NCBI GenBank assembly: GCA_964017185.1
Contig: OZ024873.1
Span: 43,634,760 to 43,698,759 of the forward strand
Source: Rugalucina vietnamica
Lineage: Eukaryota > Mollusca > Bivalvia > Lucinida > Lucinidae
DNA: 64,000 nt
Reading direction: 5' to 3'
Part shown: positions 9,646 to 59,798 of the stretch, piece after piece
Layout of the letters: the number at the start of each line of letters is the position of its first letter
Numbering within the stretch: position 1 is the first letter of the stretch
Notes under the pieces: generated by a model
Told to the model about the DNA's origin: nothing
Databases searched by the model: none
What the model saw: the letters and a program-made list of their open reading frames with translations, nothing else
Position numbers and translations under genes: made by a program

Positions 9646-12135
9646 ATGGCTTCTGGTGATTCGGGTGATTCAAATATTGACCCTTGAATTGACTTGAAAA
9701 GTTTTTGGCCAGAAGATGATGTAAGGTTTATGGAGAAAATGTTCAGGGCCACTGGCACATTTCATATTGTACCAATATACCAGCCAGTTGAAGAACATGT
9801 TGAAGAAGGGGAAGATAATCATTTTGATTTCGGTGGCCCCCGAGGGCGGATAACCGCGACAAGTACACCGGTTCGTACTGTACCCAGATCTTTTTCTGCG
9901 GAACCCCCATCATACAAATTAGTGCGCCCGACCACCCCAAGACCAAACTCTGTAAGGTTTAGAGATCAGGACACTTCGTCCAAAAATCAGAACACTTCAT
10001 CCCAAATTCAGGACAAAGTGTCACAACAAACCCATGATACAGCCTCATTGACCCATGTTAATTTTGGGCAGTATAATGTGCCAACGTAAGGGTCCCATTA
10101 AGCACAGTACATGAAGAACTGGGAAGTCATACTATCAGTGAAACACTTAACACAAATACCACTTGTGGTAAATCACAGTATGAACAAACACCCCCACCCA
10201 GTTCTCAGTATGAACAAATGCCCCCATTCAGTTCTCAGCATGAACAAAGGCTCCTACCAAGCTCTCAGTATGAACAAATGCCCCCACCCAGTTCTCAGTA
10301 TTAACAAATGCCCCCACCCAGTTTTCAGTATGCACAAATGCCCCTACCCAGTTCTCAGTATGCACAAATGCCCCTACCCAGTTCTCAGTATAAACAAATG
10401 CCCTCATTGAGTGCATGGCATAAACAAATACCTTCACTCCCTCCTTTACAACCACAAATCAAACAGGAACCAAGTTATACACTGTATGCCACCTTTAGTT
10501 CCCCCTGTTTATAATAAGACAGACAATGGAACCCCATCCCCAAAAGCATCAAGCAAAACAGATCAAGACATTCAGATAGACATTAGGGTTAAACAGTTTG
10601 GGTACCCTCCACTCCAACCAATGCCATCTGAATTTAAAATCAACATGACACTAGATTCAAGCAAGTTTATTCTGAGCCCCCACCCCCACAAAGGTGTTAG
10701 AAACCTGGGGTGGAAAGGGATGTCACTTTTACCCAAACACAGCAGTGTGGGTATGAACCTCATCAAGGTCAACAAACAGTTAAATAGGAACAATTGCATG
10801 GTGATGCCTCAGTATATGATTCCCATTACTATGGTACACAGCAAATGAAAGGTGTTGATATTTAATTACCCCGGCCCCTTCAATTCAATCAAAATATAGG
10901 TTTTGGTCAAACTGAGAGTAATGGGCACAATCAGCAGACAAAAAGAAAGTTTGTTTCATTACCCCCACCTCATGATCAGACTTACTATGCAAATTATCCA
11001 CCACCAACTTGCCCACCACAAAATATAGCTTGCTCTACAGACCCTGTTTCACACAAGGGTAGACAAACCATGGACAATATCCCCACCCATACATATTATT
11101 ATTATCCTATGGTTTCACCATCCAACCAAATCATAGGTAATACATTCCCAAATACATGGAGTGCATCTTACAATACTTCAGATATGACTGGGATGAGACC
11201 TCCTCAAATTCCTTTCTTCTCAGGTGAAGATCAAAAAGGAGATGTATCATCTGAGGTTTGGAAATTCGAACTTAATTGCTGCATCAGAGAACATTATTAT
11301 CCAGATTCTCTTATACTGCAGGCAATAAGAAAGTCCCTCAGAGGTAAAGCAAGGGACATATTACTTACCCTTGGTGAAGATGCTACTCCTTCCATAATAT
11401 TAAACAAACTGGAGGGCATATATGGCAATGTCTGCTCTGAGCAAATATTGCTGCAGCAGTTCTATGTTGTGTCTCAAAATGAAAGTGAATCAAGTGCAGA
11501 CTACAGTATCCGTCTTGAGAACCTCTTACGTAGAGCAACTCAAAGTAGACCTGTAGACGAAGTAACAAAACATGACATGCTGTGTTCTAGGTTTTGAAAT
11601 GGCTTAAGAGATCCTCATCTTAAAAACTCTTCTCGTTTCATGTTTGAAACAGAAAAAGATTTCAATAATCTCCGTTAATACATTAGATCAGTGGAGCAGG
11701 ATCTCAATACTTCTGAAGTGGCACAACGGTTAGCAACAGCATCAAGTGGTGCTGTCGAGAAAGTTCCTAAAGAAACTAAGACTGCTGCACAGTCATTGCA
11801 CACATCTGACAAATCTAGTCAGAAGATTGACAATATGTTCAATCAAATGAAACAATTGAGAGAAAAACTCAAAGGATATGGAAAAGAAATTTGCTGAAGC
11901 ATCACTTCAAGCTAAATCAAATGAGCCCTCCAGTTCAGACCTCAATCCCCCCAAACAAAACTCTACTTACCAAAGAAGTAGAGGTAGAGGTGATTATAGA
12001 GGTAGATCACGTGTCAGAGGTCGAGGCAGATATGATAACCACAGAGGTCGTGGTAGAGGTGGTTTTCAGCATGATAGAAATAATGCTGACACACAAACAT
12101 GTGAAGCTACACAAACTCCTAGTTCTTTAAACTAG
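9646..12135 (+). pseudogene. gag: Gypsy gag (capsid and RGG-type nucleic-acid-binding tail)
   Basis: The ATG at 9646 opens a frame starting MASGDSGDSNIDP, with a stop at 9685. After a frame change comes a proline/glutamine-rich stretch made of 30-bp repeats (10172-10411). The capsid-like part is at 11070-11597: IPFFSGEDQKGD..VWKFEL...AIRKSLRGKARDIL..LE.IYGNV. This resembles the Gag of gypsy elements related to PNMA/ZCCHC12 proteins. Stops at 11595 and ~11677 break it. The C-terminal part (about 11878-12135, another frame) is an RG-rich tail (RGRGDYRGRSRVRGRGRY). I see no CCHC zinc knuckle, so the RGG-like tail probably does the nucleocapsid job. Confidence 0.75.
10172..10411 (+). repeat. 30-bp tandem repeat inside gag
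   Basis: Eight units encode the decapeptide QYEQMPPPSS with variants (QHEQRLLPSS, QYAQMPLPSS, QYKQMPSLSA). The fifth unit has TAT-TAA in place of TAT-GAA and so a stop. The nucleotide core is CAGTATGAACAAATGCCCCC. Unit length is exact, so this arose by slippage or unequal exchange within coding sequence. Confidence 0.9.
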
Positions 12136-12173
12136 AACAAGTCTTCGTTGAGGAGCAAACCAAAGACTCTAAT

Positions 12174-12740
12174 GTGACCTCTAATAACTCCAAATCTGAA
12201 ACAACAGAGCCATCTCTTATGTCGAGAATGATAGGCTCCAGAAATGAGACAGAAGTGTTAGTCAATGGTCAGGAATGCATGGCCTTGATAGACTCTGGCT
12301 CTGATATTTCAACTATTAGTGTTAGGTTTTATGACAGTATGAATCCAAAGCCTGAGCAGCTGAGTATGTCAGATTTTAATCTGAACATCGCTGGAGCTAG
12401 TGGCTCCAAAATACCATACCTGGGTTACATTGAAGCTGATTTGTGCATGTCTGATACTGAGCATGAGCCTGTAGCTGTTCCAATTCTAGTTGTCCCCACA
12501 ACAGGGTACTCTGGCCAAGTGCCTATGATTGTTGGTACAAATATTATTTGGCGCATCAGGTGTAATGTCTCTGATCAGTCAACCATTTCATCTGCATGGA
12601 GTAACGCATTTACTGCACTTTCTTGCTCTCTGACTAAACTGGTAAAGATCACAAATAAGAAGCCAGTTGTTTTAAAGCCGAATGAAACTCAGACTTTAAC
12701 AGGCTTAGTGAGAAATGCTTCACACTTTGAGACTGAGTGA
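12174..12740 (+). pseudogene. Gypsy aspartic protease region
   Basis: The 188-codon frame contains EVLVNGQECMALIDSGSDIS. The DSGS active-site loop is seen in retropepsin-type proteases (usual D-S/T-G-A/S). About 80 residues later comes VPMIVGTNIIW, resembling the second conserved strand (I/L-x-G). The enzyme would cleave the polyprotein. The frame stops at TGA (12738-12740), and the RT frame continues in -1 at 12737 with a 4-base overlap. That may be a remnant of programmed shifting or simple decay. The motif itself is intact. Confidence 0.85.
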
Positions 12741-14569
12741 CTGAAAACACATCCTCTCAAGATAGTTTTAATGTGTGCCCTCGGCTTGTGTCAATCAAAT
12801 GTAACACGAAATCAGCCAAGATTCCTGTTAGAATTTGTAATTTATCAGCCAGGCCTGTCATCATAAAACCAAAGAGCCAGTTGTGTGACTTCAATGGGGT
12901 TAAAGTTTTTGAGAATGTCAATCCATTTTCAACTTCCTTTTTACAGAAGGCTGATACTAGTGAAAGTACTTCTGGGGATGTGAAGCTGGAATTGTCGGAA
13001 GACATATTGGCTGCTGAACAACATGAAAAGGCATCTACTATGCTAAACAAGTGGAAACATATCTTTTCAAAAGGGGCGACAGATCTTGGTTTTACCAATC
13101 AGGTCGAGCATGAGATCATCTTATATGATCCAACTCCATTTAAGGACCCATATAGGCGTATACCTCCGGCAATGTTTGAGGAGGTGCGTCAACATTTAAA
13201 AGAAATGTTGGATGCTGGGGCTATTAGAGAGTCACAAAGTCCCGATTCTTCAAATGTTGTCCTTGTGAGGAAGAAAGATAATTCTCTTCGTTTCTGTATT
13301 GATTACAGAAAGTTAAATAGCAGAACTATTCCTGGTGCCTATTCTCTTCCGAGAATAGAAGAAACCATTGATTCACTCTCTGGTTTCTACGAATGCAACC
13401 GAATGGCTTTTGGTCTAACAAACGCTTCAGCAACATTTCAAAGACTTATGGAGCGCTGCATGGGTAAATATCACCTCAAAGAATGTCTCATATATCTTGA
13501 TGATATTATAATTTTCAGCAAGACATTCGATGAGCATATAACACGTCTGGAAAATGTGTTCAAACAACTTGAAAAACACGGCTTGAAGCTGAAAGCTTCC
13601 AAATGCGAGTTTTTCAAGAGCCAAATACAGTATTTAGGCCATATTGTCAGTGATGAAGGCATTCAAACAGATCCTGACAAGATAGCCGCATTGAAAGACT
13701 GGCCAGCCCCAACCAATATCAAAGAGTTGCGCAGTTTCCTTGGCTTTGCAGGCTATTACCGCAGATTTGTGTGTAATTACTCCAAGATTGTCAAGCCATT
13801 AAATGCTCTCTTAGTTGGACATCCAACTCACAAGAAAGTCAGGAATACAAAGAAAGCTACACTTTGGACATGGGGTATTGAGCAACAAACAGCTTTTGAT
13901 ACTATTATCGAAAAGCTCACATCTCCACATGTCTTGGCATACACTGATTACACCAAACTATTCTTGCTCAACATAGATGCAAGTGGAGATGGTCTTGGTG
14001 CTGTCCTTTATCAGGAGCAGGATGGCATTGAGCGAGTTATCGCTTACGCCAGTCGTGGTTTGCGTGCAAGCGAATGCAGTTATCCAGCTCACAAATTAGA
14101 GTTCTTGGCCTTGAAATGGGCAGTCTGTGACAAATGCCATGACTACCTGTAGGGCAGCAAGTTCACTGTAAGGACTGACAACAACCCGTTGACATACGTC
14201 CTTACGACTGCAAAGTTGGACGCCACAGGTCATCGTTGGCTTGCTGCATTATCGAGTTATGACTTTTCCTTGGTTTACAGATCGGGAAAGAAGAACGCCG
14301 ATGCTGATGCGTTAAGCCGTTTACCATCCCAAAACAAGGAAACGTTATTTAATGAGGTCATAAAAGCTATCTGTCAAGGTGTACTTGCTTCACGGGAAGA
14401 GACACCTGCTGTTGAATGTGTTCTTTTGACACAAGAGACAAATAATGTAGCGGACGATAATGGACAAGACACAGGCACAGACCTAAGTCAAGTAGATTGG
14501 CCTGCTGAGCAAACCATGGATTCGACTATTAGTCGTGTAAGACAAATGTTCTTACCAAGCGACAAATAG
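12737..14569 (+). pseudogene. Gypsy reverse transcriptase and RNase H, internally deleted
   Basis: The RT domain shows LRFCIDYRKLNSRTIPGAYSLPRIEETIDSLSG, RMAFGLTNASATFQRLME, then YLDDIIIFSK (catalytic DD) and FLGFAGYYRRFV. At about 13383 the sequence jumps from DSLSG directly to FYECNRM. Some 35 residues expected in all gypsy RTs are absent, including the LD-x-SGY block with the first catalytic aspartate. RNase H follows (LLNIDASGDGLGAVLYQ, YASRGLRASE), with an in-frame TAG at 14150-14152, then DNNPLTYVL and HRWLAALSSYDF. The next stop is at 14567. The deletion is in frame, so it is invisible to an ORF scan. Confidence 0.9.
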
Positions 14570-14585
14570 CACTTGAACCAAAGGA

Positions 14586-15945
14586 GTGTCAGAAATACCT
14601 GAGGGAATGGGACAATTTGTTTCTAAGAGACAATATTCTCTATCGCAAAGCTTCTATCAATGGTACTGGCCTGGTATGGATGGTGATACTGAGAAATATA
14701 TTAGGAACTGTCCTAGGTGTATCAGGAGAAAATCCAAAACCAGCACACCAGCAAAACTTGTTGTTGATACAACATATCCAATGGATTTGGTATGTATGGA
14801 TTTTCTGTCGCTCGAAATGTCTTCTGGTGGGTACGAACACGTCCTGGTTATCACAGACCATTTCACCAGGTATGCTCAGGCTATTCCGTCACGCAACCAA
14901 ACAGCCAAGACAACAGCCAAGCTCATTTTCGATAATTTCGTTGGTCATTATGGTTTTCCTGCTCGTCTCCATTCTGACCAAGGTCGGAATTTCGAGAGCC
15001 AGGTGATTAAAAAGGTACAAGTAGGCAAAGATCAGGAAAAGGCGCAATCAGAAAAAGATTCCCACTCCAAAAACCGAGGTGGGAAAAAACCAAACCAACA
15101 ATCAGGTACTTATACCATGAAACATATCGTAAGCCGAATGAGCAGCTATTTTCCCAATAGGTGGCCACTCAGTTACCTTAACTTAACTAAAAATATGAAA
15201 ACATACATAAGGCGCCAACAGCACAAAAATTTTAAACACCAAGACATATAACAAAAAGAACCACTACAGAAGTATCGACTTGGAACGATCAGTAACACAA
15301 AGTTACTGGCGGGCTTAAGGAGCTGTGAGCCATTGCCAATGTGGATAGACGAGGACAACTCATTATCATCCCATGGGCAATGGTATGCCAGAGAGGTTTA
15401 ACCAAACTCTCCTTGATATGCTTGGTACTCTCGAAGAGGACAAAAAGTCTGACTGGAAAACTTATGTTCCTCCTCTGGTGAATGCATACAATTCGACTCG
15501 CCATGAAACAACCGGGTTTTCGCCTCACTATCTTATGTTTGGACGTCATCCAAGGTTAGCAGTTGATGCCTTCTTGGGTATTTAACCTGGTAATGAAAGT
15601 TCAGACAAGTCGAAGTACGTTTCCAATCTGAAACAGAGATTGGATTTCGCATACAGAACGGCATTAAAGGAGGCAAAGCAGAAGGCATAAAACATATATG
15701 ACCTTAGGGTCAGAGAGTCCCAACTTTTACCTGGGGGCCGTGTATTGGTTCGCAATGTTGGATTGAAAGGCAAGAACAAGCTTGCAGATAAGTGGGAGAA
15801 AGAAGTTTATTTGGTGGTCGAGCAACCAAATAAAGATATTCCAGTTTTCGTTGTGAAACGCAAGCATGGACGAAACACCCAAAAATTGCTAAACAGGAAT
15901 CTATTACTTCCCTTTATGACACTGCCTGCATCCAAACCAAAGGCC
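14586..15945 (+). pseudogene. Gypsy integrase, split by a Penelope-like insertion
   Basis: Linker sequence (FLRDNILYRKASINGT) is read in one frame and YWPGMDGDTEKYIRNCPRC in another. The two histidines of the HHCC zinc-binding domain should lie between them and are missing (deletion near 14660). The core shows VCMDFLSLE, VLVITDHFTRYAQAIPS and HSDQGRNFESQVIK, with two of the DDE residues. At 15011 an unrelated 306-bp insert begins. The core resumes after 15317 with a stop and a 1-bp deletion, then HYHPMGNGMPERFNQTLLDML, which carries the third acidic residue. The C-terminal GPY/F-like part ends at 15946 in a stop contributed by the downstream MITE. It would be non-functional. Confidence 0.88.
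15012..15317 (-). mobile_element. Penelope-like 3' fragment inserted in the integrase
   Basis: The minus strand matches the 3' end of the Penelope-like element at 36920-37236: GCCCGCCAGTAACTTTGTGT, CTTACGATATGTTTC, CCCACCTCGGTTTTTGGAG, ending TTTGCCTACTTGTACC. The host integrase reads ...QVIK before the insert and K-E-L after it, so both borders can be placed to a few bases. A TTAA/AAGG-like short duplication is possible. 5' truncation with an intact 3' end fits target-primed reverse transcription. Confidence 0.85.
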
Positions 15946-22404: not shown

Positions 22405-22650
22405 GCAATAAGACTAGCAACCGAAACGCTAATTGTCAATGGTGAGCAATAAGCGTAGCAGCCGCAACGCTTATTGTCCACGGTGAAGAAGAAGCGCTGC
22501 AATTGCAACGCTTATTATCCACGGTGAACAATAAGCGTAGCAACCGCAACGCTTATTGTCCACGGTGAACAATATGCGTAGCAACCGCAACGCTTATTGT
22601 CCACGGTGAACAATAAGCGTAGCAACCGCAACGCTTATTGCCCACATGTA
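22405..22650. repeat. Palindromic array, AACGCTTATTGTCCACGGTG unit
   Basis: Five to six head-to-tail units of about 43 bp. Each is a near-perfect dyad: AACGCTTATTGTCC-ACGGTGA-ACAATAAGCGTAGCAACCGC. Each unit could fold on itself, and the array as a whole could form cruciforms. The same unit is found at the ends of the 19893-24032 element. Confidence 0.9.
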
Positions 22651-23317
22651 ACACTTCTACAAACATTTTTCGATGCTATTCACATGGCTGAAAGTTTACA
22701 GTATTAATATTGAATTCAGTATTGGGAAGATTTTCCCCCAAATGCATTGGTATAAGAAAACCCTAGTTTTCAGTATTAGAAAAATTGCTTTTCAGCATTG
22801 AGAATTTTTGGAACTTTCACCCATGTATCCATACAGGGTAAGATACTCATAAGGACAAAAGTCCGTTTAATGTATATCCCCTCATACCCCACTTTTATAT
22901 AGAAAAACTGGGGTTTACAAAACATAAACGAATATCAGTAATAAAACGCCTTTAATGTCATAATGTAGCCATAGATCACGTTCTGGTCGGCGCATAATGA
23001 ACAGAGCGTGTAATTGCTGTTTAAAAATAAGCTGATGTCAACAAAGAAACTCAGCAATTAGAAGAGCTGTCAAACAAAAATTTCCGTACGTTTTTTTTTT
23101 TTTTTTTTTTTTTTTTCGCTTGTTTAGACACCCGGCTATCAACTATCAACTGATATTGTTTGCTTTCGAATCGAAATAAATCTCCGTCTCCGTATTTTAT
23201 ACGCAAATTGTTTAAAAACATTAACTTCAGAACAAAAACATGCGATCAAACCCCGTTACTCATTTTGTAGGGACATAAATATATTTATACAAACGTTCTT
23301 GCACTATAGATGACTTA
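22651..23317. other. Unassigned sequence with a poly-T tract
   Basis: No gene or repeat family recognised, apart from a pure T run of about 26 nt near 23091-23116. Confidence 0.5.
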
Positions 23318-34370: not shown

Positions 34371-37236
34371 ATATTACTGTAAACTAACTGTTATGCAGTT
34401 CATTTTTGTATGGATAATTGGCAGACGACATTTAATCTGATAATAATGGTTCCGGGCTATAAAATAAATGTTGCACATACAAAAAGGAGCATTCGGGAGC
34501 TTTTGTCAAAATCAAAGTACTAAAAGTACTAATGTTTTAGGCATCAACGTATGTTTGCGTTTCTTGTGTTACAAAAGTGTTTCCAATCACATATATCCAT
34601 CATGTTTAGAGATAGTTACAAATATAACAATCCAATCAGAAATACTATTTTTAATTTCAGTAAACTTGTTTCTGATCTTGAGATTGTAAAGATTCAAGAT
34701 ATGATTATCAACCAGCCGGACATATAGTTACTGGAAATTTAAAAATAATTTCGGATTCTAGAACTCGCAAAATTGTTTCTAGAGTCCGAAATATAGATTC
34801 CCATCCTACATTAATTTCGACAAATGTAACGAGGAGATTGCATCTGCATTAAATGATTTCGGTAATCGATGGTGTAAACGAGAGGGTGTTGAAGATAATG
34901 CTCTTAAAGAATGGAAAAGAAGTATCTTCACTATCGTGGATAAACGTATTAAGTTTTATTCACAAAATACTAATCTTTTACCTCCTAAACCCAAATCGTC
35001 ATTTAGGCATTTGAAGCAGGGTATCCAAGAATTTCATAGAAAGTATGTCTTGGTTCCGACAGACAAAGCCGCAAACAATGTTGTTGTCGTTTGTAGGCTT
35101 CACTACGTTAACACCTTAAAACAGGAGCTTGGTGGTACCAGGGCTTATCTGGAGACAGATACTGATGAAGTGTCTGTAGTTAATGCCCACTTAAACGATT
35201 TACCTGTTAAGTTTTCTGTTTGTGTCAATGAAGGCCAAGACAAACTTCCTACGATGTATTGGTTACCTAAGCTTCACAAAAGACCGTACAAAGCTAGATT
35301 TATTGCAAATTCTAGCTCTTGTACTACCTCTGAACTTTCTAAATTATTTACTTCCTGTCTTACTGCTATCAAATCTCATTTTATAAGAAGATACTGTGAG
35401 ACAGTGTATGAAACTTCAAATAAAAATTGGTTTTGGTCAATAAAAAAATTCTGGTGAGGTGCTCAGTAAATTGAGGTGTAGAGGGTTCCGTGCGACAAGC
35501 TTGTCAACATATGATTTTTCTACTCTGTATACAACATTACCACATAATCTAATAAAAGAAAAACTTCTGGATTTGATAGAGTGGACCTTTAAAAGAGCAT
35601 TAAAAAACTATGGTTCATTTTATTTGGCATGTAATGACAGAAAGGCTTTTTTTCACTTCCTCTGACCAAAGTCGGTATATACTTTGGTCGTGTCAGAATG
35701 TGTGCGACGCCTTATCCTATCTCCTTGATAATATTTATATTAGATTTGGGACCAAGTTATACAGACAAATTGTTGGAATTCCGATGGGAACAAATTGCGC
35801 ACTTCTCGTAGCTGATTTATTTTTATACTGCCACGAAAGAGATTTCATGGATTATCTTAACCATGATAATCAAGCTGATGTTATCGAGGCTTTCAATTCC
35901 ACATCTAGGTACCTCGATGACCTTTTGAAAATTGACAACCCTTATTTTGAAGGTATGGTCGATCAAATTTATCCACCTGAACTACAGTTGAACAAAGCCA
36001 ATATCTCAGATACCGAAGCACCCTTTTTAGATCTACATCTTTCTGTTGCAAATGGACTTGTTTCTTCTAAAATTTATGATAAGCGCGTTGACTTTGATTT
36101 TGATATAGTTAATTTTTCTTTTTTGGATGGTGACGTTCCTCGTCGTACTTCTTATGGTGTATATATTTCGCAACTTATTAGGTTTGCTAGAGTCTGCAAT
36201 CATGTTACAGACTTCAACGCTCGAAATAAATGTTTAACGGCCAAACTTCTCCAACAGGGCTATCGGTATCATAAACTTCGAAAAACCTTTTCTAAATTTT
36301 ATCGTAGACACTATGAATTGATTTCCAAATATAATGTTGGATTAAAGACGCTTTTAAGTGAGGGCCTTTTGGAACCTGAATTTTATGGTGACTTGGTTTA
36401 CAAATTTAAGAAACTTATAGGAATTAATGATTTTTCTTTTCAGTTCAGAAAAATCATAACACGTTACAGACGAATAGGTTGTTATAACTTGAATTTTATG
36501 CGACAGTCTGCATGCTTAGTTTTTAACCCAATCATGGTTGATAACTATGCTGCCTTCTTTAATTGCACGCCGTTGGGTCGGGCGTCAGACTCTATGATGG
36601 CCCCGACTTAAAGCTATTCATTTTAGTTGGTTGGGGCCGGAGCTTCTTGTCTGTTGCTTGGCCCACCGGGGTCCAACTGGTGTTTTTCTTTTGCTCCGGA
36701 ATTAGTAGGTTATTCGGCGCCCAGGCATCTCCATCGTCGGGAAGCTTACTCAATCTGTGATTCCTGGTTTTTGATTCATCAAGATGTTCATCATGATTTA
36801 TTTGTTTGTTCTTGATGATTCATTGACTAGTTAGAGATTCCCCACGAGGACCGAAGAACTAACTAAATGTTATGAACCACTGCAGAAGCTGAGGGTGAGG
36901 TTAGGTGCCTTTAAAACCGGTTTAAGCCCGCCAGTAACTTTGTGTTACGGATCGTTCCAAGGCGATACTTCTGTGGTGGTTCTTTTTGTTTTATGTCTTG
37001 GTGTTTAAAAAAATGTGCTGTTGGCGCCATATGTGTGTTTTCATAGTTTTAGTTAAGGTAACTGAATGACCACCTATTGGGAAAATAGCTGCTCATTCGG
37101 CTTACGATATGTTTCATGGTATAAGTACCTGATTGTTAGTTTGGTTTTTTCCCACCTCGGTTTTTGGAGTGGGAATCTTTTTCTGATTGCGCCTTTTCCT
37201 GATCTTTGCCTATTTGTACCTTTTTTTTAATGTATC
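34371..37236 (+). mobile_element. Penelope-like element, near full length
   Basis: The RT-coding part (about 34780-36611) is followed by ~620 bp of 3' sequence ending in GCCTATTTGTACC and a T run at 37216. The same 3' sequence, with different 5' breakpoints, occurs at 15012, 38861, 44583, 48016 and 51570, which defines the family and its 3' end. I could not fix the 5' end; 34371-34780 is AT-rich and probably leader or degenerate coding sequence. No GIY-YIG endonuclease motif was recognised, so this may be an endonuclease-lacking or N-terminally degenerate member. Confidence 0.8.
34780..36611 (+). pseudogene. Penelope-like reverse transcriptase
   Basis: Three overlapping frames reconstruct the order of RT motifs. 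First comes VLVPTDKAANNVVVVCRLHY and PTMYWLPKLHKRPYKARFIA (34936-35457). Next is STYDFSTLYTTLPH (motif A, ~35503). Then VGIPMGTNCALLVADLFLYC (motif B) and SRYLDDLLKI (motif C, catalytic DD, ~35905). The tail YKFKKLIG...NPIMVDNYAAFFNC ends at 36611. The PMGTN and YLDD blocks and the KLHK motif are characteristic of Penelope-like RT. Frame breaks coincide with runs of seven identical bases at 35442-35448 (A) and 35647-35653 (T). The ATG before 34936 is uncertain. Confidence 0.85.
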
Positions 37237-56690: not shown

Positions 56691-57432
56691 ACTTATTTCA
56701 ATCATTTTCGAATCCTTTCCTTAGGATCCAGTGCCACCGGGAAGATTTTTGTTTGATGTTTGTCCTATTTCTCCCAATATATTATATAGTAAGATAAGCA
56801 TATCGGTGTAATATTAAGGGGAACAACCCATAAATTATGTCTTTATTCATAAAACCCGGAACTCTCGCTGGTACCGCAATACAAGTATTGCTGTCGTAAG
56901 GTTTTTTTTTTTTTTTTTTTTTTTTTATTATTATTATTATTATTTTATTGAATCCTAGTTTGGAACAGCGATAGTTGCTGGTTTCATGTGAGTTGTGCAT
57001 GCATGTGCGGCTCGCAGGGGGTCGGTTGAGAATTGTCGCCTTTCGTGGTGTGCATGGTTGTGTCTTAGATGGTCGTATTCCGTTTGGTCTGTGTTCTCTG
57101 CATTGTGCGACTGATGTTGGGTTTAATTTTCGTGACTGTCAATTGGCTGGTTAGCTTTTGTGCTTATTTGAATTTTCACAATGGGGCACTCGGTGCTGGT
57201 TTCCCAGAATCATGTAATTGCGCACTGTTTGCGTGTATGTTTAGTTTTGTGAATTGGGTGTTTGTACAAAGAGGCACATGGTTGTTAAGCCTTTTTCGTG
57301 CTCATCGTGGTGGAACGAGACATTTTGCTGCTTATGAGTGCTTTCATAGTGGCATTCTGGTGTATCAGTTGGTTCGGGTCATTAAGCCGGGCCGTTTTTG
57401 CCGTGAGTATGCACGCGCGGAATTATACTCAG

Positions 57433-57989
57433 CGTCAATGAAAAGTTACCACCACTTAAAGTTTGATATTTTGAAAAATATAAAATTTCTATCAAACATT
57501 TTGATTTCATTCATGATTCTGGTCAACAGTGTATTGATTTAGTGGCATAAAACAGTTCCACTAGTCCTGGAACTATGGTGCACGTGATACACGTGCAATT
57601 TGGGATTTTCGAAAAGTTTGAGAACCAGAAAACCCAGTTTTTACGAGTCGGCATGCTTTCTCATTCCTCTGACACCCACTTTGAAAACGCCATCCAATTG
57701 GTTTAAATTTTTCCATCGGCTGGCGAAATAGTGGACTTAACTTTCAGGTAGTGCCCAAATTTTGCATTTTTCTATACATTTCAATGGAATCTTCTGACAT
57801 TTGTCAAAGAGTGCGTGTAGTCTATTCGGCTGTGATGACCACTGTTTTCAATAGCAATGATGGATGGCATGTTTTGCCAAGAAAATGAATGCTGAAGCAT
57901 CAGCATTAGTCTCTTCAGAATGAAGCAAATATTGTCATATGTTAATTGAACCTGATTTACTGGTAACTTTTCATTGACGCTAAGTATAG
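57433..57989. mobile_element. MITE inside copy 1
   Basis: TACTCAGCGTCAATGAAAAG-TTACCA at the left is complementary to TGGTAACTTTTCATTGACGC-TAAGTA at the right, with TA at both borders. Copy 3 reads GAATTGGTTTCGG across the site, giving the empty site directly. A TA duplication suggests a Tc1/mariner-type MITE. Its many A residues are unconverted, unlike the flanking copy 1. Confidence 0.82.
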
Positions 57990-58127
57990 TTTCGGGTTCT
58001 GCTGGGTTGAGCATGAAAGGTGTCTTGTATTTTGGTTTTGACGTTTTTGATCTATGTTTCCCGTAAAAGATGGCGTCAAGACGTTGTGAATTTGGATTTT
58101 GGTGGCGCCATAACGGTGTGGCGACGT

Positions 58128-58164
58128 TCCTGCTGAGGAGCTGTGGAGTGAGGGCGCTACGGGA
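58128..58164 (+). ncRNA. Hammerhead ribozyme remnant, copy 1 (core broken)
   Basis: At the position of the intact ribozyme in copy 3, the core reads CTGAGGA and GAGGG instead of CTGAAGA and GAAAG. Two invariant adenines of the GAAA segment are lost and stem I has a G.T pair. All changes are A-to-G. It should not self-cleave. Confidence 0.7.
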
Positions 58165-58205
58165 CTGAGGTGAATTGTTGCTGTTGCTTCATTTCATTCT
58201 TTCTT

Positions 58206-58206
<1 letters not shown>

Positions 58207-58277
<71 letters not shown>
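58207..58277. repeat. (TA)n microsatellite between copies 1 and 2
   Basis: About 35 TA units joining the tails of copies 1 and 2. ORFs of alternating Tyr-Ile across it are artefacts. Confidence 0.97.
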
Positions 58278-58278
<1 letters not shown>

Positions 58279-58282
<4 letters not shown>

Positions 58283-59005
58283 CAACAAGTCCTTGTGTCG
58301 GTAATGATAGGAAGGAGGAGTGAAGTGGAGCAACGGCAACAATTTGTTTCAGTCCTGTAGCGCTTTCACTTTGCGGCTCTTCAGCGGGAGCGTCGCCATG
58401 TTGTTATGGCGTTGCTAAGGTTCAGATTCGTAGCGTCTTGACGTTGTCTTTTACGGGAAGTGTAGATTGAAGGTTTGACGTCGCGGCGAAGGCGTCAAAG
58501 CTAGAATACAGGATGTTTTTCTTGCTCAACCCGGTGGAGCCCGAGGCCGGTTCCGTGTGTGTGTGCTCGCGGCGGGGACGGCCTGGTTTAGTGACCTGAA
58601 CCAGTTGATGTATTGGAGTGCTATTGTGAAAGTGTTCATGGGCAGCAGGATGTCTCGTTCTACCGTGATGGGCGCGAAGGGGGTTTGATAGCCATGTGTT
58701 TCTTTGTATAGACACTTAGTTCATAGAACTGAACATGTGCGCAGGCAGTGCGTAATTGCATGATTCTGGGAAGCCGGCGCTGAGTGTTTCATTGTGAAAA
58801 TTCAAATAGGCACAGGGGTTGACCAGCCAATTGGCAGTCACGGGGGTTGGGCTCAGCATTGGTCGCACAATGCGGAGAACGCAGACTGGGTGGAATGCGA
58901 CCATTTGGGACACAACCATGCGCACTGCGAAATGCGATAGTTTTCGGCTGACTTCCTGCGAGTTGTGCATGTGTGCACAACTCGCATGGAACTGGCAACT
59001 ATCGC
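58279..59005 (-). mobile_element. Ribozyme-bearing repeat, copy 2 (reverse, converted)
   Basis: Read on the minus strand, copy 2 aligns to copy 3 over its whole length. It has more than 80 T-to-C differences and almost no A/G differences. On the plus strand these are A-to-G, the same direction and strand as in copy 1. It is tail to tail with copy 1 across (TA)n and head to head with copy 3 (junction ~59010). The region is notably GC-richer than copy 3 as a result. Confidence 0.88.
58353..58389 (-). ncRNA. Hammerhead ribozyme, copy 2 (weakened)
   Basis: The core CTGAAGA and GAAA are kept, with GCGC and cleavage site TA. Stem II reads GCC-GCAA-AGT with a C-A mismatch, and stem I has a C-A mismatch (TCCCG/CAGGA region). 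Both mismatches are restored if the copy 2 C is read as the T seen in copy 3. Confidence 0.65.
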
Positions 59006-59012
59006 TGTACCT

Positions 59013-59760
59013 AGTTTGGTATCCTAGTTTGGTACAGCGATAGTTGCTAGTTTCATGTGAGTTGTGCATACATGTACAACTCGCAGGAAGTCAGTTGAAA
59101 ATTATCGCATTTCGTAGTTTGCATGGTTGTGTCTTAAATGGTCGTATTCCATTTAGTCTGTGTTCTCTGCATTGTGCGACTAATGTTGAGTTTAATTTTC
59201 GTGACTGTCAATTGGCTGGTTAACTTTTGTGCTTATTTGAATTTTCACAATGAAACACTCAGTGCTGGTTTCCCAGAATCATGTAATTACGCACTGTTTG
59301 CGTATATGTTCAGTTTTATGAATTAAGTGTTTATACAAAGAAACACATGGTTATTAAACCTTTTTCGTGCTCATCATGGTAGAACGAGACATTTTGCTGC
59401 TTATGAATACTTTCATAATAGCATTCTAATATATCAATTGGTTCAGGTCATTAAACCAGGCCGTTTTTGCCGTGAGCATACACACACGGAATTGGTTTCG
59501 GGTTCTACTGGGTTGAGCATGAAAAATATCTTGTATTTTAGTTTTGACCTTTTTGCCGCGACGTCAAACCTTTAATCTATATTTCCCGTAAAAGATAACG
59601 TCAAGACGTTATGAATTTGAATTTTAGTAACGCCATAACAATATGGCGACGTTCCTGCTGAAGAGCTGTAAAGTGAAAGCGCTACAGGACTGAAATAAAT
59701 TGTTGCTGTTGCTTCATTTCATTCTTTCTTCCTATCATTACCGACACAAGGACTTGTTGC

Positions 59761-59763
<3 letters not shown>
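59013..59763 (+). mobile_element. Ribozyme-bearing repeat, copy 3 (reference state)
   Basis: It runs from ATCCTAGTTTGGTACAGCGA to CCGACACAAGGACTTGTTGC followed by (TA)n at 59765. It carries an intact hammerhead motif (59653-59689). It agrees with copy 2 at A/G positions and with copy 1 at C/T positions, and so is the majority state at nearly every variable site. No convincing ORF. Ribozymes next to (TA)n tracts are known from Penelope-like elements; membership of that class is inference. Confidence 0.85.
59653..59689 (+). ncRNA. Hammerhead ribozyme (intact minimal type I)
   Basis: Stem I is TCCTG pairing with CAGGA. The core CTGAAGA fits the invariant CUGANGA. Stem II is GCT-GTAA-AGT (three pairs, GNRA-type loop). 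GAAA follows, then a minimal stem III GC/GC closed by A-T, and the cleavage dinucleotide TA (UH). All invariant positions are present. Stem III has no loop, as in other minimal metazoan hammerheads that work as dimers. Activity is untested. Confidence 0.75.

Positions 59764-59798
<35 letters not shown>

What the first reader, a model, noticed from the sequence alone, without database searches (positions are those of the whole stretch)
56953..59763. Strand-specific A-to-G conversion in two facing copies of a repeat
Three copies are present: copy 1 (plus), copy 2 (minus) and copy 3 (plus). Copy 1 differs from copy 3 by roughly 65-70 A-to-G changes and about five others. Copy 2 differs from copy 3 by more than 80 changes that are A-to-G on the plus strand. 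Copy 3 holds the majority base nearly everywhere. Copies 1 and 2 are tail to tail, so a plus-strand transcript would fold into a duplex. Adenosine deaminases acting on RNA (ADAR) convert A to I (read as G) in both strands of such a duplex. The simplest reading is a hyper-edited transcript copied back into DNA. The opposite reading (C-to-T on the plus strand in both) needs the same change twice at nearly every site. The ribozyme gives polarity: stems I and II pair fully in copy 3 and are mismatched exactly at converted bases in copies 1 and 2. The later MITE (57433-57989) is not converted.
Basis: partly seen in the sequence, partly recalled or inferred. Interest (0 to 1): 0.9.

Follow-up and report, generated by a model that had tools for sequence, protein, structure and literature searches.

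The report
DNA fossil of hyper-edited hairpin RNA
Two mirror-image pieces of a jumping gene in an animal genome carry a dense, one-directional scar of A-to-G changes that matches the signature of an RNA-editing enzyme, which suggests that an edited RNA was written back into the inherited DNA.

Summary
Confirmed. Against copy 3, copy 1 has 72 A>G of 77 private substitutions; copy 2 has 105 T>C of 109 in its own sense, that is, A>G on the plus strand. Forty-nine other genomic pieces of the repeat carry the unconverted base in 2661 of 2719 and 3985 of 4054 site-cells, so the polarity holds. 72/183 and 105/268 adenines are converted, both with the ADAR 5'-neighbour order U≈A>C>G (p 8.7e-9). Conversion stops where the copy1:copy2 duplex stops: 0/29 in copy 1's flank, 0/12 in copy 2's partnerless tail, 0/199 in copy 3. 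The repeat is the terminal repeat of a Penelope-like retroelement (GIY-YIG). A second locus, on C15, has one arm with 81 A>G of 83 differences, 81/205 adenines, same neighbours. Best reading: ADAR hyper-edited an RNA duplex and reverse transcription fixed the result in DNA. The route into DNA is not settled: no unedited source locus was found, only one arm is converted at C15, and the 3'-neighbour signal is not significant over three arms.

The parts
56806..56950 (+). unconverted 5' flank of copy 1: 3'-region of the Penelope-like element plus T/ATT tract; similarity to the element ends near 56806 (5' truncation)
   Evidence: aligns to L042, L004, L020 and others; 0 of 29 A sites converted in 56806-56901
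56951..57432 (+). copy 1, first part: terminal repeat (sense), A>G converted
   Evidence: 72/183 A converted in the whole of copy 1
57433..57989 (+). MITE inserted in copy 1 (terminal repeats and TA flanks read by eye), not converted
   Evidence: 2 A>G among 22 differences from the per-site majority of 7 relatives
57990..58210 (+). copy 1, second part, lacking 19 bases present in the other copies
   Evidence: the deletion junction was found once in the genome
58208..58277 (.). (TA)n tract between copies 1 and 2, unconverted
58272..58306 (-). tail of copy 2 (q718-752), without partner in copy 1; unconverted
   Evidence: 0/12
58307..59011 (-). copy 2: terminal repeat in antisense, A>G on the plus strand
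   Evidence: 105/268 plus-strand A converted (tail included)
59012..59020 (.). centre of the head-to-head dimer of copies 2 and 3; the centres printed for other dimers differ
59019..59770 (+). copy 3: unconverted terminal repeat with tail, ending at (TA)n
   Evidence: 0/199 majority-A sites converted; many genomic copies at 97-99% identity
59794..60600 (-). neighbouring repeat (family B, hammerhead-like core on the minus strand by eye); a copy of it at C15 (L065) is the second converted locus

Best explanation
A plus-strand read-through RNA held c1 (sense), (TA)n and c2 (antisense), and perhaps c3 (sense). c1 and c2 folded into a duplex of about 700 bp, and an ADAR deaminated about 39% of the adenosines on both arms. 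Shown: the conversion, its strand, its polarity, the ADAR 5'-neighbour preference, and its limits at the ends of the c1:c2 overlap. Inferred: c3 stayed unedited because with three arms (+ - +) only one plus arm can pair with the minus arm, and c1 is transcribed before c2. Inferred: the edited RNA was reverse transcribed, inosine being read as G. The cheapest geometry is target-primed reverse transcription by the Penelope-like element itself, starting at the tail of c3, running through c3, c2, (TA)n and c1, and stopping in the element's 3' region (end of similarity at about 56806). Copy-back of the edited RNA at the same locus is the main alternative route. The C15 locus can be read the same way if its insertion was cut short before an edited sense partner. 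The confidence given is for RNA editing followed by reverse transcription by whichever route; for the target-primed geometry alone I would give about 0.45.
For: Spectra and polarity. Conversion rates 39.3%, 39.2% and 39.5% in three arms. 5' neighbours over the three arms: U .53, A .48, C .26, G .13, p 5e-13. Limits 0/29, 0/12 and 0/199, with chances of 5e-7, 2.5e-3 and 7e-44 at a rate of 39.3%. Few other substitutions: 5 of 77 and 4 of 109, 2 of 83 at C15. The genome has A_deamin matches at four loci (14 matches); one has HAE, PCG, SCSDKIARWN and KIESGEGT (that these are ADAR motifs is recalled). Relatives of the repeat flank an ORF with a GIY-YIG domain. Penelope RNA is massively edited in a lizard (PMC5625713, passages). 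An active PLE starts reverse transcription internally, which explains 30-40 bp tails, and it extends both DNA strands (PMC11167929, passages).
Against: No unedited parent with c1's 19-base deletion was found (up to 1 mismatch: one match, c1 itself). The hit lists (40 candidates scored in each, of 243, 192 and 99) hold no second tail-to-tail pair of this length. They hold one short one, an 89-bp fragment at C2:14173991 beside a full copy (L027), with 12 substitutions without bias. The (TA)n tract is unconverted although its A's have a 5' T, so it must have been short then or have re-expanded. At C15 only one arm is converted, so a plain hairpin with both arms copied does not explain it. The 3'-neighbour effect is weak: p 0.048 in the window arms, 0.67 at C15 and 0.16 over three arms. 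The downstream A enrichment that PMC5625713 reports for invertebrates is not seen. No RNA data were available.
Confidence: 0.78

Rival explanations
1. ADAR (or a similar adenine deaminase) acted on DNA: on the first-strand cDNA in its RNA hybrid during target-primed reverse transcription. This would leave T>C in the sense of the copy in one arm of a dimer only.
For: c2 and the C15 arm B are both T>C in the sense of the element, with the other arm of the dimer clean (sense of family B judged by eye from the hammerhead-like core). That ADARs deaminate dA in RNA:DNA hybrids in vitro is recalled, not read here.
Against: c1 is A>G in sense and cannot be such a cDNA. The tail of c2, the first part of the cDNA, is 0/12 converted. 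Limits fit the c1:c2 overlap.
Confidence: 0.12
2. Copy-back, a route within the best explanation: the locus itself was converted in place. Its own edited transcript was reverse transcribed and used as a template for repair, so that the tract covers c1-c2 here and one arm at C15.
For: No source locus found elsewhere. One-arm conversion at C15 is easily a partial tract.
Against: Needs a rare route (RNA- or cDNA-templated conversion). The truncated left end and the tailed right end also fit one ordinary PLE insertion.
Confidence: 0.3
3. Ordinary mutation, or repeat-induced C>T/G>A mutation in the other copies (copy 3 derived).
For: Would give transitions only.
Against: Outgroups carry the unconverted base. 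In the other copies A>G is 42 and T>C 49 of 518 pooled substitutions. No other copy in the capped hit lists shares the changes, nor in two pattern searches.
Confidence: 0.01
4. Assembly artefact: RNA-derived reads used in polishing put edited bases into the assembly.
For: Would give ADAR contexts and duplex limits.
Against: At C15 only one arm is converted although both arms of a hairpin RNA would be. Every converted site would need majority editing. How the assembly was made is not known to me; it is 1.09 Gb in 47 contigs.
Confidence: 0.04

Closest known systems
A-to-G hyperediting of avian retroviruses (RAV-1, avian leukosis virus; cited in PMC8586724, passage)
   Same: dense ADAR-linked A>G in a reverse-transcribing element (that it was seen in proviral DNA is recalled)
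   Different: exogenous retroviruses; here a Penelope-like element in a genome assembly, with both arms of one duplex preserved in cis
APOBEC 'DNA editing' of retrotransposons (PMC2873906, passages)
   Same: a deaminase scar in genomic retroelement copies found as mismatch clusters
   Different: that is G>A from C deamination of cDNA; A-to-G/T-to-C clusters were counted there too (49 in mouse IAP, 129 in human, in the passages seen) but served as the comparison class; here A>G with ADAR neighbours and duplex limits
RNA hyper-editing of inverted repeats, including Penelope in lizard (PMC5625713, passages)
   Same: substrate (long inverted repeats) and neighbour rule (G depleted 5')
   Different: there the RNA differs from the DNA; here the DNA itself carries G
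Penelope-like elements with tails and both-strand extension (PMC11167929, passages)
   Same: GIY-YIG domain, pLTR, optional 30-40 bp tail
   Different: no A>G conversion is mentioned in the passages seen

Membership tests
ADAR hyper-editing | A>G only, on one strand, in a stretch that is double-stranded in RNA | tested here: met
   72/77 and 105/109; limits follow the c1:c2 overlap; pairing itself inferred from the sequence
ADAR hyper-editing | 5' neighbour U≈A>C>G | tested here: met
   p 8.7e-9 in the window arms, p 5e-13 in three arms
ADAR hyper-editing | 3' neighbour preference (G, or A in invertebrates) | tested here: inconclusive
   p 0.048, p 0.67 at C15, p 0.16 over three arms
ADAR hyper-editing | ADAR gene in the genome | tested here: met
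   14 A_deamin matches at four loci; motifs in one
ADAR hyper-editing | edited transcripts exist | not testable with these tools
   no RNA-seq
Penelope-like element terminal repeat | associated GIY-YIG ORF | tested here: met
   GIY-YIG 2.2e-8 in the L043 ORF and 9.9e-8 in the L042 ORF
Penelope-like element terminal repeat | associated reverse transcriptase | tested here: inconclusive
   no Pfam RT hit in the two ORFs; RT-like motifs (RFLDD, IYSKPTDTHNYL) judged by eye and recall in the L043 ORF
Penelope-like element terminal repeat | optional 30-40 bp tail | tested here: met
   many copies end at q717 and others reach q752, as the tail described in PMC11167929
Penelope-like element terminal repeat | hammerhead ribozyme in the pLTR | tested here: inconclusive
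   core by eye; no Rfam hammerhead at E<=10; only stem I in the fold of c3
retro-inserted copy | unedited source elsewhere in the assembly | tested here: not met
   deletion junction found once, in c1; no sister tail-to-tail pair of this length in the capped lists
repeat-induced point mutation | C>T/G>A relative to the ancestor | tested here: not met

The most novel reading that the evidence does not exclude
ADAR deaminates adenines in DNA during retrotransposition: the cDNA strand in its RNA hybrid (c2, C15 arm B), and neighbouring target DNA folded with it (c1). This would be an ADAR-based DNA-editing defence against Penelope-like elements that leaves heritable scars.
Probability: 0.12. Interest if true: 0.93.

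Novelty: new variant of a known kind. Interest (0 to 1): 0.83.

Why it matters
If right, a change made in RNA became heritable: 177 edits of what may be one RNA molecule, on both arms of a duplex, are kept in a genome. Such scars would record past transcription and ADAR activity, show the editing pattern of single molecules, and make it testable how often edited RNA is reverse transcribed in the germ line. A second locus turned up in another repeat family among 12 fetched loci, one of them the window's own, which suggests that a genome-wide search would find more.

Tried and rejected
Rejected: copy 3 as derived, and C>T mutation in the other copies (outgroups). The ribozyme as main polarity evidence. 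A shared origin of the edits with other copies: with c2 and c1 as queries, the best full-length non-self hits are 85% and 90%, the ordinary members. Gradual accumulation: four low-identity copies (L027, L029, L031, L039) have balanced spectra.

Led nowhere: offset correlations between edits within and across arms showed nothing consistent. Five pattern searches for more converted copies gave 0, 4, 2, 1 and 2 matches. Of these 9, four are the known loci (C15 arm B twice, c1, c2) and the other 5 carry only the forced base. These patterns need one forced converted site and no mismatch, so they miss part of what may exist. No third copy of family B was found within 8 kb right of L065. The first, looser alignment of the C15 arms gave 86 of 219 adenines, misaligned end included; the clean block of 524 columns is used instead. 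Literature searches did not list a report of a germline ADAR scar in a transposable element (listings; one search was about Penelope ribozymes); passages of PMC5974252 held none either.

Rows dropped before counts: columns with gaps; alignments under 60 bases; pieces under 100 bases and the overlapping loci L001, L019, L042-L045; inverted pairs under 100 bp or TA-rich. The 52 hits behind 0/29 include overlapping loci and simple-repeat matches. Among the 16 outgroup hits the two copies held by both L066 and L067 count twice.

Full report
What is there. The window lies in a 1.09 Gb genome of 47 contigs (C5:43634760-43698759); that it is an animal is inferred from its ADAR-type genes. At 56806-59793 there are three copies of a repeat of about 750 bp. 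c1 (+) is preceded by part of the element's 3' region and interrupted by a MITE. c2 (-) and c3 (+) form a head-to-head dimer; (TA)n lies between c1 and c2 and after c3. Related loci L042 and L043 carry the same repeat on both sides of an ORF with a GIY-YIG domain; no Pfam reverse transcriptase was hit in these partial ORFs, whose RT-like motifs I judge by eye. Many copies end at q717 and others reach q752 with a 35-bp tail. PMC11167929 (passages) describes for Penelope-like elements pLTRs, an optional 30-40 bp tail explained by internal start of reverse transcription, and extension of both target strands. The last gives a natural origin for head-to-head dimers (my inference).

Conversion. Of substitutions private to one copy in 693 gap-free columns, c1 has 72 A>G of 77. 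c2 has 105 T>C of 109 in its own sense (A>G on plus). c3 has 2. Against 49 outgroup pieces of at least 100 bases from 39 loci, the majority base is A at 71 c1 sites (2661 of 2719 cells, 15 with G; no G at all at 60 sites) and T at 106 c2 sites (3985 of 4054 cells, 19 with C; no C at 89 sites). c3 departs from the majority at 10 sites without bias. The pooled spectrum of the outgroups has 42 A>G and 49 T>C of 518. Queries with c2 and c1 list no copy that shares the changes; the next best full-length hits are 85% and 90%, the ordinary members (40 of 192 and 40 of 99 candidates scored).

ADAR signature. Plus-strand adenines converted: 72 of 183 in c1, 105 of 268 in c2. 5' neighbour, both arms: U 59/109, A 79/165, C 29/106, G 10/71 (p 8.7e-9); each arm alone p about 1.5e-4. 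3' neighbour: G 36/69, C 40/92, A 57/164, U 44/126 (p 0.048). PMC5625713 (passages) reports upstream G depletion in both of its species groups, and downstream G preferred in mammals and reptiles but A in amphibians and invertebrates; our 3' signal is weak and does not settle the group. A_deamin matches lie at four loci (14 matches), one with HAE, PCG, SCSDKIARWN and KIESGEGTIPV (the meaning of the motifs is recalled).

Limits. c1 edits run q31-679 and c2 edits q30-709. The element's flank just before c1 has 0 of 29 A sites converted (and 0 of 4 in the T tract). The tail of c2 that c1 lacks has 0 of 12. c3 has 0 of 199. Chances at 39.3% are 5e-7, 2.5e-3 and 7e-44. So the converted stretch is the overlap of c1 and c2, as expected if these two paired. 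The (TA)n between them is clean, which needs later expansion or a short tract at the time. The MITE is clean, hence probably later.

Second locus. The repeat right of c3 (family B) was searched: 671 candidates, 40 scored, 12 loci fetched, one of them the window's own. A scan for inverted pairs with one-way mismatches found one of these, L065 on C15. Arm B (L065:2440-2963) differs from arm A by 81 A>G and 2 T>G in 524 ungapped columns; 81 of 205 adenines; 5' neighbours U .50, A .49, C .19, G .11 (p 1.1e-4); 3' neighbours p 0.67. Outgroups (16 hits, two copies counted twice) carry A in 985 of 1010 cells and G in 12. Arm A is normal. No third copy was found in the 8 kb to the right. In the sense of the element (hammerhead-like core by eye) arm B is T>C, as is c2. 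Of 131 inverted pairs in all sequences held, 102 with at least 20 mismatches, the only 11 rows that are at least 70% one-way belong to these two loci.

Mechanism. Editing of an RNA duplex by ADAR explains strand, neighbours, rate and limits. That the DNA now carries G requires copying of the edited RNA into DNA. One model covers both loci: a read-through RNA of the order sense-(TA)n-antisense-sense, in which the antisense arm pairs with the first sense arm, the last sense arm stays free and unedited, and reverse transcription starts at its tail and stops at varying points upstream. At C15 the stop would fall in (TA)n, so that the edited sense arm was lost. This is inference. Against it: no source locus with c1's private 19-base deletion was found; of 42 outgroup pieces over the site none lacks the block, one having a one-base gap. 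In the capped hit lists the only other tail-to-tail case is an 89-bp fragment beside a copy at C2 (L027), without bias. Copy-back at the locus and deamination of cDNA in hybrids are live rivals. The last explains why one arm of each dimer is T>C in sense, but it does not explain c1 or the clean tail of c2.

Novelty. RNA hyper-editing of inverted repeats is known (PMC5625713, passages), and so is A>G hyperediting of avian retroviruses (PMC8586724, passages). APOBEC scars in genomic retroelements are known, and the same survey counted A-to-G clusters in genomic traces as a comparison class (PMC2873906, passages). A germline ADAR scar of a transposable element was not among the listings, which cover open-licence papers only.

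Mended were the short tail-to-tail case at C2, the fold of c3 (stem I does form), the status of the reverse transcriptase, the count of pattern searches, and the account of repeated requests.

Noticed in passing
L065 (C15:5472968-5476573) 2440-2963: second converted locus, in another repeat family, one arm only
   Followed up: yes
window 36586-36653 (+): SECIS_1 selenocysteine insertion element above the Rfam gathering score (39 bits); ORF 35604-36611 upstream has no Pfam hit at E<=0.01
   Followed up: no
window 10866-15251 (+): LTR-retroelement-like ORFs: PNMA domain at 10866-11597, RVT_1 and RNase H at 12737-14152, integrase at 14577-15251
   Followed up: no
window 22431-22656: imperfect palindrome with 30 minus-strand one-way mismatches of 56 (each counted twice) and 26 others; much less pure than the finding
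   Followed up: no
L042, L043, L019, L008, L017, L044: head-to-head copies of the same repeat without conversion; the centres printed differ
   Followed up: partly
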